This document shows, one piece after another, positions 37,100 through 37,901 of a stretch of DNA of 40,984 nt. A program made the translations under genes and the position numbers. Source of the DNA: an uncultured Algimonas sp. (GTDB taxonomy: Bacteria > Pseudomonadota > Alphaproteobacteria > Caulobacterales > Maricaulaceae). How positions within the stretch are numbered: the stretch's first letter is position 1; each line of letters opens with the position of its first letter. The notes beneath the pieces are model-generated. The model was given only the letters and a program-made list of their open reading frames with translations. It had not been told where the DNA came from and did no database searches. Where the stretch lies: NCBI GenBank assembly GCA_937923575.1, contig CALDUL010000027.1, forward strand, positions 1 through 40,984. The letters are read 5' to 3'.

Positions 37100-37486
37100 G
37101 TGACCCAACCCAAACGCCAATTCATCAGCCTATCCGAAGGCGAAAAGACCTATGCCATGTCCCGCGCCGTGGTGCAGGGCGACTGGTGCTTCGTGTCCGG
37201 CACGGTCGGCTACGACTACAAGACCGGGACCATGCCCGAAGGCGCGGCCCAGCAGGCGCTCAACGCCTTCACCAACATCCAGGCCGCGCTGAAGGCCGGC
37301 GGGTTCGAGCTCGGCCACACGATCCGGGTGCAATACACCGTCTCCGACCGCGCCCACGTCGCGAAAGTGCTCCCGGTGATCCAGCAGCACTTCGGCAAGA
37401 TACTGCCCGCCGCGACGATGGTGATCGCGGAACTGGTGGACGAGACTATGAAGGTCGAGATCGAAGTGACGGCGTTTCGGGGGTGA
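37100..37486 (+). CDS. Rid-family protein (YjgF/YER057c/UK114 superfamily)
   Basis: The 128-residue product has the Rid fold motifs: VQGDWCFVSGTVGYDYKTG, QALNAFTNIQAALKAGGFEL, and MKVEIEVTAFRG at the end. RidA proteins remove reactive enamines from PLP enzymes, relying on an Arg near the position that here reads LPAATMVIAEL; this Arg is missing, so the protein is likely a different Rid subgroup without proven deaminase activity. A PLP-linked role beside two PLP cysteine desulfurases is attractive but inferred. The GTG at 37100 follows a purine-rich stretch. Confidence 0.87.
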   Translation: MTQPKRQFISLSEGEKTYAMSRAVVQGDWCFVSGTVGYDYKTGTMPEGAAQQALNAFTNIQAALKAGGFELGHTIRVQYTVSDRAHVAKVLPVIQQHFGKILPAATMVIAELVDETMKVEIEVTAFRG

Positions 37487-37490
37487 TAAA

Positions 37491-37901
37491 ATGAGTTGGC
37501 CAAGAGATAGTTACACAGGCGTCGGTGGAGGCCTCTACACAGGCGTCGGTGGCGGGATGTACACTGGCGTCGGCGGTGGAGCTTACACTGGTGTTGGCGG
37601 CGGCGCTTACTCCGGAGTTGGCGGCGGCATGTATTCAGGAGTTGGAGGCGGATTATACTCCGGTCCTGGAGGCGGACTGTATTCTGGACCCGGCGGAGGC
37701 CTCTATTCCGGCCCCGGCGGTGGACTTTATTCGGGTCCCGGTGGGGGATTGTATTCTGGTCCGGGCGGCGGTCTCTACACGGGACCTTCGTCTGAGCCTT
37801 ATATGTCGAACATTCCCCCACGACCTCTTTATTTGAGGGAACTACGCTCTCGTGGTTACAATCAAATCGCTGATCGCTTGCAACGAGCGTGGAAGCTTTA
37901 G
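37491..37901 (+). CDS. Glycine-rich octapeptide-repeat protein of unknown function
   Basis: The 136-residue product starts MSWPRDS, then has 11 full copies of Y-[ST]-G-[VP]-G-G-G-x (residues 8-95), a degenerate 12th copy YTGPSSEP, and a 33-residue tail, YMSNIPPRPLYLREL onward, that looks helical and basic. The first six copies carry Val at position 4, the later ones Pro. There is no signal peptide or membrane helix. It starts four bases after the Rid gene, has a GGGGTGAT box upstream, and ends eight bases before sufC, so it is translated within the suf operon. I recall similar repeat proteins but know no function. Confidence 0.85.
   Translation: MSWPRDSYTGVGGGLYTGVGGGMYTGVGGGAYTGVGGGAYSGVGGGMYSGVGGGLYSGPGGGLYSGPGGGLYSGPGGGLYSGPGGGLYSGPGGGLYTGPSSEPYMSNIPPRPLYLRELRSRGYNQIADRLQRAWKL
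37512..37799 (+). repeat. Twelve 24-bp tandem repeat units coding the octapeptides
   Basis: Eleven complete 24-bp units and a diverged twelfth encode the repeat. The amino acids are nearly identical from unit to unit while third codon positions differ freely (Gly uses GGA, GGC, GGG and GGT; Ser uses TCA, TCC, TCG and TCT). This pattern argues for an old array kept by selection on the protein rather than recent slippage. Confidence 0.9.

What the first reader, a model, noticed from the sequence alone, without database searches (positions are those of the whole stretch)
37491..37901. Octapeptide-repeat glycine-rich protein embedded in the suf operon
Eleven near-perfect copies of Y-[ST]-G-[VP]-G-G-G-x, followed by a distinct basic tail, are encoded between the Rid gene and sufC with almost no spacing. 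Protein repeats are conserved while synonymous positions have drifted, so selection holds the peptide. A Tyr every eight residues with Gly-rich linkers could form a stacked beta structure, bind a metal or ligand, or phase-separate. No function is known to me, and placement inside an essential Fe-S assembly operon suggests a real link or a tolerated insertion.
Basis: partly seen in the sequence, partly recalled or inferred. Interest (0 to 1): 0.72.

Follow-up and report, generated by a model that had tools for sequence, protein, structure and literature searches.

The report
Mobile eleven-repeat glycine-rich protein family
A small glycine-rich protein built from eleven eight-residue repeats belongs to a rare, unnamed gene family that is often carried by prophages and plasmids; its place inside an iron-sulphur operon here looks like a chance landing.

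Summary
The frame and its eleven octapeptides are real, and the protein is under purifying selection. The suf link fails. Twelve same-genus genomes with the rid-sufC junction lack the gene and have 61-1152 bp between rid and sufC. SufB, SufC, SufD and SufS match none of 51 loci that hold relatives. GC3 is 0.485 against 0.74-0.88 in neighbours.

It belongs to an unnamed family: the window protein has no Pfam, NCBIfam, PHROGs or PADLOC match. Members are spread over several phyla but rare: 18 of 5,426 E. coli genomes, 2 of 398 phylum-mates. Many lie in P2-like or other prophages, on plasmids or beside integrases. The unexpected result is that 27 of 33 members have exactly eleven units with unit-specific residues, although synonymous sites have diverged widely. 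That argues for an ordered fold of fixed length, not a slippery repeat.

I read it as mobile-element cargo, most likely acting in phage or element conflict. The function is inferred: defence genes are often neighbours, but about as often in control stretches.

The parts
37491..37901 (+). octapeptide-repeat gene, 136 aa (with stop codon)
   Evidence: open frame; homologues under purifying selection
37491..37511 (+). N-terminal cap MSWPRDS; family motif W-[PV]-R-[ND]
   Evidence: W and R conserved in alignments A1 and A9
37512..37775 (+). array of eleven octapeptides Y[ST]G[VP]GGG[LMA]
   Evidence: same number in 27 of 33 members
37776..37787 (+). closing half unit YTGP
37788..37898 (+). tail of 37 residues with SNIPP motif and a predicted two-helix hairpin (residues 111-120 and 124-133); Arg here where 24 of 27 members have Trp
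37100..37486 (+). Rid/L-PSP gene just upstream (context, not part of the family)
   Evidence: PF01042
37910..38653 (+). sufC just downstream (context, not part of the family)
   Evidence: TIGR01978

Best explanation
The gene is mobile-element cargo (a prophage 'moron' type gene) that landed as a lone copy in a variable slot of the suf operon and has no role in Fe-S assembly. Shown here: it belongs to a rare, patchy family that in several lineages is carried by prophages or plasmids or lies beside integrases; its peptide is under strong selection; the number of units is nearly always eleven, with residues specific to unit position. Inferred: the array is an ordered glycine-rich fold of fixed length whose two ends meet, and the two-helix tail is the binding part. 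Inferred, weaker: it works in the cytoplasm in conflict with competing phages or elements (exclusion, defence or counter-defence). In the window it is probably made as a passenger of the suf transcript.
For: Absent from 17 other same-genus genomes and from all 12 rid-sufC junctions found, whose gaps range 61-1152 bp. SufB/C/D/S match 0 of 51 family loci, with a working positive control. Low GC3. E. coli: 18 of 5,426 genomes; in the 6 inspected it lies between the P2-like integrase and rcdA, and 17 records share that arrangement; 4 related prophages at the same site have nothing or another ORF there. Viral contigs: next to an integrase (L039, L036) or just after/near the P2-type portal gene (L038, L035), where PMC9122126 (passages) places a hotspot of anti-phage systems. 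Bacilli-type operon of HTH, M78-Fic and this gene with an 11-bp overlap in 6 of 6 loci. Fixed unit number and unit-specific residues; selection. Conflict-type neighbours by hand: CBASS, SIR2-HerA, PDC-M03, dCTPase, AbiU.
Against: Nearest-neighbour PADLOC test: about 6 of 28 family-flanking proteins against about 5 of 32 control proteins, no enrichment. No match in 50,697 phage records (BLAST masks simple repeats). Several loci have housekeeping neighbours (L022, L074-L077, L079), and in the order-mates of one genus the gene looks resident rather than mobile. E. coli L023 has it without the neighbouring HEC-01-like pair. No activity was shown.
Confidence: 0.5

Rival explanations
1. Element cargo with a physiological benefit to the host (lysogenic conversion): a cytoplasmic glycine-rich protein for stress, scaffold or condensate function, not for conflict.
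For: Rarity and carriage by elements fit this too; defence neighbours are not enriched over control; housekeeping neighbours in some loci.
Against: Bacilli-type operon with CapH/CapP-like regulator and Fic; several conflict-type neighbours.
Confidence: 0.25
2. Toxin, antitoxin or anti-defence component: the protein blocks or feeds a partner enzyme such as Fic, a HipA-like kinase or a phage product.
For: 11-bp overlap with M78-Fic genes in 6 of 6 Bacilli-type loci; HipA_C/HIRAN pair beside L014.
Against: Most loci have no constant partner; E. coli and window copies stand alone.
Confidence: 0.18
3. An accessory factor of SUF Fe-S assembly.
For: Tight packing between rid and sufC in the window; sdhB-like gene nearby in four order-mates.
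Against: Absent at 12 of 12 same-genus junctions; no Suf gene in 51 family loci; foreign GC3.
Confidence: 0.03
4. A repeat frame without function, spreading or decaying neutrally.
For: Repetitive; broken copies exist (L009, L017, L079).
Against: pN/pS 0.04-0.21, near-constant unit number and unit-specific residues, conserved non-repeat tail.
Confidence: 0.02

Closest known systems
Accessory slots of P2-like prophages (cos-proximal old/tin hotspot; cI-int hotspot), PMC9122126, passages read
   Same: The E. coli copies sit in an exchangeable slot of a P2-like prophage, and two viral-contig copies lie at the portal gene
   Different: The E. coli slot here is between int and the host junction; the passages I read do not name that slot or this protein; no anti-phage activity is known
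Beta-flower / Tubby-like families PF21784-PF21786, PMC10584680, passages read
   Same: Short repeated units, about 96 residues, C-terminal helix in many
   Different: No Pfam match at E <= 1; octapeptide GG units, not the [DNEQ]xxG hairpins that the paper describes; no fold match
Glycine-rich or octapeptide repeat proteins in general (polyglycine-II bundles, ice-nucleation proteins; recalled, from no call)
   Same: Glycine-rich or octapeptide periodicity
   Different: No Pfam match, only a low-complexity PDB sequence match at 0.009, no fold match; fixed eleven units plus a helical tail
CapH/CapP-type regulation of defence operons (PADLOC models)
   Same: Bacilli-type loci carry capH-like HTH (4.8e-12, L019) and capP-like M78 (5.9e-25, L011) genes upstream
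   Different: Here M78 is fused to Fic and no cyclase is next to it; the octapeptide protein itself matches no PADLOC model

Membership tests
SUF Fe-S assembly component | conserved linkage to suf genes | tested here: not met
   absent at 12 of 12 same-genus junctions; 0 of 51 family loci match SufB/C/D/S
SUF Fe-S assembly component | physical interaction with SufBCD | not testable with these tools
   needs co-purification
Mobile-element (prophage) cargo gene | sporadic presence and exchangeable position in an element | tested here: met
   E. coli slot: gene, nothing or another ORF at the same prophage site
Mobile-element (prophage) cargo gene | the window copy lies in a recognisable element | tested here: not met
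   window ORFs look like housekeeping genes by sight, no tRNA; lone-gene insertion inferred
Anti-phage defence gene | match to a known defence family | tested here: not met
   no PADLOC model at 0.01
Anti-phage defence gene | enrichment beside defence genes | tested here: inconclusive
   about 6 of 28 against about 5 of 32 in control
Anti-phage defence gene | protection against phage | not testable with these tools
   needs a plating assay
Beta-flower (PF21784-PF21786) | Pfam match | tested here: not met
   0 families at E <= 1
Polyglycine-II helix bundle | packed polyglycine-II helices | tested here: inconclusive
   best of five models has array pLDDT about 66-76 without DSSP elements, the other four average 39-48

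The most novel reading that the evidence does not exclude
A new class of mobile-element conflict protein: eleven octapeptides form one ordered glycine-rich fold whose ends meet and which presents a fixed ladder of Tyr/Ser and Thr hydroxyls; a partner enzyme (Fic, HipA-like kinase) or an infection signal modifies the ladder and so switches the binding of the helical tail to a phage or host target.
Probability: 0.08. Interest if true: 0.85.

Novelty: new variant of a known kind. Interest (0 to 1): 0.55.

Why it matters
The window protein matches no model in the four libraries searched, and a close relative's model has no fold match, yet the family crosses several phyla with its length nearly fixed at eleven units. 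A hard count of units suggests a closed or length-gauged structure, so it is a compact target for structure work. The E. coli copies make a direct test of function possible in laboratory strains. It also shows that sitting inside an essential operon is weak evidence of a role in it.

Tried and rejected
Suf partner: rejected on distribution. Beta-flower: my first recalled lead; the passages and the Pfam scan do not support it. Defence-island membership looked strong from hand-picked loci, but the nearest-neighbour control showed no enrichment. That control counts PADLOC model names, of which only the first 25 of 37 and 43 were shown, so both numbers are approximate. The wider 5-kb scan (99 and 128 proteins) had hits on both sides and cannot be resolved by protein; three two-gene cassettes are visible on the family side. 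Loci L076 and L077 were dropped from it as near-duplicates of L074. First AlphaFold job: mean pLDDT 47, only the tail confident. Second job, with L022 and not the window protein as target: best 76, the other four 39-48, so its array is not trusted. Foldseek: nothing at E <= 0.001 in PDB or viral models. phmmer against PDB: one low-complexity match at 0.009. Literature: the repeat strings found 0 papers; the word search listed nothing on point (listing only). A second hit in the own genome (L002, E 0.003, three stops) is a Pro/Ala-rich frame and was dropped. A Cupriavidus-order hit at 6.4e-4 with a stop was not examined. The Clavibacter plasmid hit and 9 of the 12 plasmid hits were not opened. 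My ORF caller takes longest frames and makes spurious ORFs in GC-rich DNA, on family and control sides alike. The promoter scan at L024 found no sigma-70-like site.

Full report
OBSERVATION. The frame at 37491-37901 (+) is open and codes for 136 aa. It lies four bases after a Rid/L-PSP gene (PF01042) and eight bases before sufC (TIGR01978). It consists of a cap MSWPRDS, eleven units Y[ST]G[VP]GGG[LMA], a half unit YTGP and a 37-residue tail. Codons vary between units much more than residues do (pS 0.76, pN 0.17). In the window gene neighbouring units are more alike in DNA than distant ones (0.75 at distance one, 0.58 at ten), which fits old local duplication; in L024 the trend is weak and in L011 it is absent.

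A FAMILY WITHOUT A NAME. The window protein matches nothing in Pfam, NCBIfam or PHROGs at E <= 1 and nothing in PADLOC at 0.01. Yet a scan of genome contigs gave 16 loci, by record title in Pedococcus, Propionibacteriaceae, Bacilli and Clostridia MAGs, an uncultured bacterium, Neobacillus, Helicobacteraceae, Rhodanobacter, Malikia, Cupriavidus, Aeromonas and Aliiroseovarius. Four order-mates of the window carry it, as do 18 of 5,426 E. coli genomes (a DNA search and so a lower bound), 12 of 72,556 plasmid records with the Aeromonas query, one plasmid record with the window query and nine distinct IMG/VR contigs. No record of the phage collection matched; BLAST masks simple repeats.

RARE AND PATCHY. 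Tallies include the seed genome: 5 of 60 relatives, with 0 of the 17 other same-genus genomes; 1 of 385 class-mates; 2 of 398 phylum-mates; 1 of 75 in the Aeromonas family; 3 of 249 in the Neobacillus order, one of them a remnant; 2 of 250 in the Cupriavidus order, one a weak hit that I did not examine. The 12 records opened by handle have one copy each.

NO SUF LINK. Of 18 same-genus genomes 13 gave a sufC match, the window's own and 12 others. In those 12, rid was found too, with 61-1152 bp between rid and sufC; 8 of the 12 gaps exceed 500 bp, and cupin-like and other short ORFs lie in them. The octapeptide gene is in none. SufB, SufC, SufD and SufS of the window match none of 51 loci that hold relatives (some are longer cuts of one place) even at 1e-5, while the positive control matches. 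GC3 of the gene is 0.485 (tail 0.42) against 0.74-0.88 for the five neighbouring genes measured. The rest of the window looks like housekeeping genes by sight, with no tRNA, so no carrier element is visible. Against this reading: in the four order-mates an sdhB-like gene (an Fe-S subunit, by motif) lies on the opposite strand 0, 48, 0.9 and 2.1 kb-scale distances downstream (L075, L077, L076, L074; exact places). The gene seems resident in that genus, and the pair is convergent, so I take it as local gene order.

MOBILE CARGO. In the 6 of 18 E. coli genomes that I inspected (one of the six records is labelled a plasmid) the gene lies between the integrase of a P2-like prophage and rcdA. A query of integrase, gene and rcdA is covered to at least 80% in 17 records. 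Four other strains with a related prophage at this site have nothing annotated there (L096, L098) or a different ORF (L097, L099): an exchangeable slot. In viral contigs the gene adjoins an integrase (L039, L036), follows a P2-type portal gene by about 0.1 kb (L038) or lies about 1.1 kb from one (L035). PMC9122126 (passages) describes the region between gpA and the portal gpQ of P2-like phages as a hotspot of anti-phage systems. In L012 and L013 a Phage_integrase gene ends about ten bases downstream on the opposite strand. A transposase gene lies near L008/L068.

BACILLI-TYPE OPERON. In L011, L012, L013, L015, L019 and L020 (L012 and L013 code for the same protein) the gene overlaps by 11 bp a gene with the same start and length, preceded by an HTH gene. 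For L011 Pfam finds M78 peptidase and Fic in it and PADLOC capP at 5.9e-25; for L019 PADLOC finds capH at 4.8e-12 in the HTH gene and capP. The other four were judged by sight. Synonymous divergence of the octapeptide gene among L012, L019 and L020 is 0.37-0.76, so the arrangement has been kept for some time.

CONFLICT NEIGHBOURS AND THEIR CONTROL. By hand: CBASS cyclase and 2TM effector (L021/L072), SIR2 and HerA (L078), a PDC-M03 pair (L014), dCTPase type (L016), AbiU/AIPR (L017), methylase (L067), a HEC-01-like pair (L024, absent in L023), a DndB-like gene (L009), a HEPN match below its cut-off (L039). No such neighbour was seen at L022/L073, L074-L077, L068, L071 or L079. The test against control was negative: the nearest ORF on each side of 14 family loci (28 proteins) matched PADLOC at 1e-15 in about six, and 32 ORFs in the middle of 16 control stretches, mostly of the same contigs, in about five. 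I claim no enrichment.

ELEVEN UNITS. In 33 members 27 have exactly 11 units, three have 10 (L011, L027, L057), one 7 (L037) and two 4 (L008, L015). Left out: broken L009, L017 and L079, L010 at a contig edge, and L013, the same protein as L012. L035 lacks its N-terminus but shows 11. In 23 less redundant 11-unit members the residue after GG depends on the unit: Ala at unit 3 in 19 of 23, Leu at units 6, 8, 9 and 10 in 22, 22, 22 and 23 of 23; 0 of 5,000 within-protein shuffles reach this. Shared ancestry inflates this, but wide synonymous divergence and the spread over phyla suggest that the residues were kept. Over 252 units of 23 proteins GG is invariant, position 4 is Tyr or Ser in 250 and position 5 Thr or Ser in 214. 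E. coli RM10466 (L027) has ten units where L024 has eleven, so units can be lost.

STRUCTURE. Two AlphaFold jobs give the tail as a two-helix hairpin with block pLDDT 86-95. The array is not secure: blocks of about 26-42 in the first job, about 66-76 in the best model of the second, whose other four models average 39-48. Both best models have two-residue strands at residues 2-4 and 104-106, which I take to pair; the output does not name partners. A divergent viral-contig member (L057) has a hydrophobic N-terminus and two Cys near these places, which fits ends that meet. No fold match.

MECHANISM. Shown: cargo position in E. coli prophages, selection, near-fixed length. Inferred: an ordered glycine-rich array with its ends together and a binding tail; cytoplasmic action in phage or element conflict. 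The window copy has Arg for the Trp of 24 of 27 tails, so its function may be altered. Papers: PMC10584680 and PMC9122126 by passages; others as search listings only.

Noticed in passing
L041-L052, between rid and sufC: The rid-sufC gap is a variable slot in the window's genus: 8 of 12 gaps exceed 500 bp and hold cupin-like or other short ORFs.
   Followed up: partly
L011:3046-5198 and the same in L012, L013, L015, L019, L020: HTH gene, M78-Fic fusion gene and octapeptide gene in a row with a constant 11-bp overlap; resembles CapH/CapP regulation.
   Followed up: partly
L057:5818-6288: Divergent member with a hydrophobic N-terminus and two Cys near the cap and tail start, perhaps an exported form.
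   Followed up: no
L034:5731-6162 and L037:5719-6126: Serine-type arrays with units such as STSQYGGL and STLKYGGM in place of YTGPGGGL.
   Followed up: partly
L017:5001-5400: Neobacillus copy is split over two frames inside the array; described only.
   Followed up: no
L024:4093-5826: A second variable slot of the same P2-like prophage, between cI and int, holds an AAA ATPase and DUF4276 pair (HEC-01-like); related prophages have other ORFs there.
   Followed up: partly
L031 (E. coli record labelled plasmid pE300082_56): A 57-kb record labelled plasmid carries the prophage genes together with host genes rcdA to dacC.
   Followed up: no
L074-L077: In one genus of order-mates the gene keeps its place near an sdhB-like gene, convergent with it.
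   Followed up: partly
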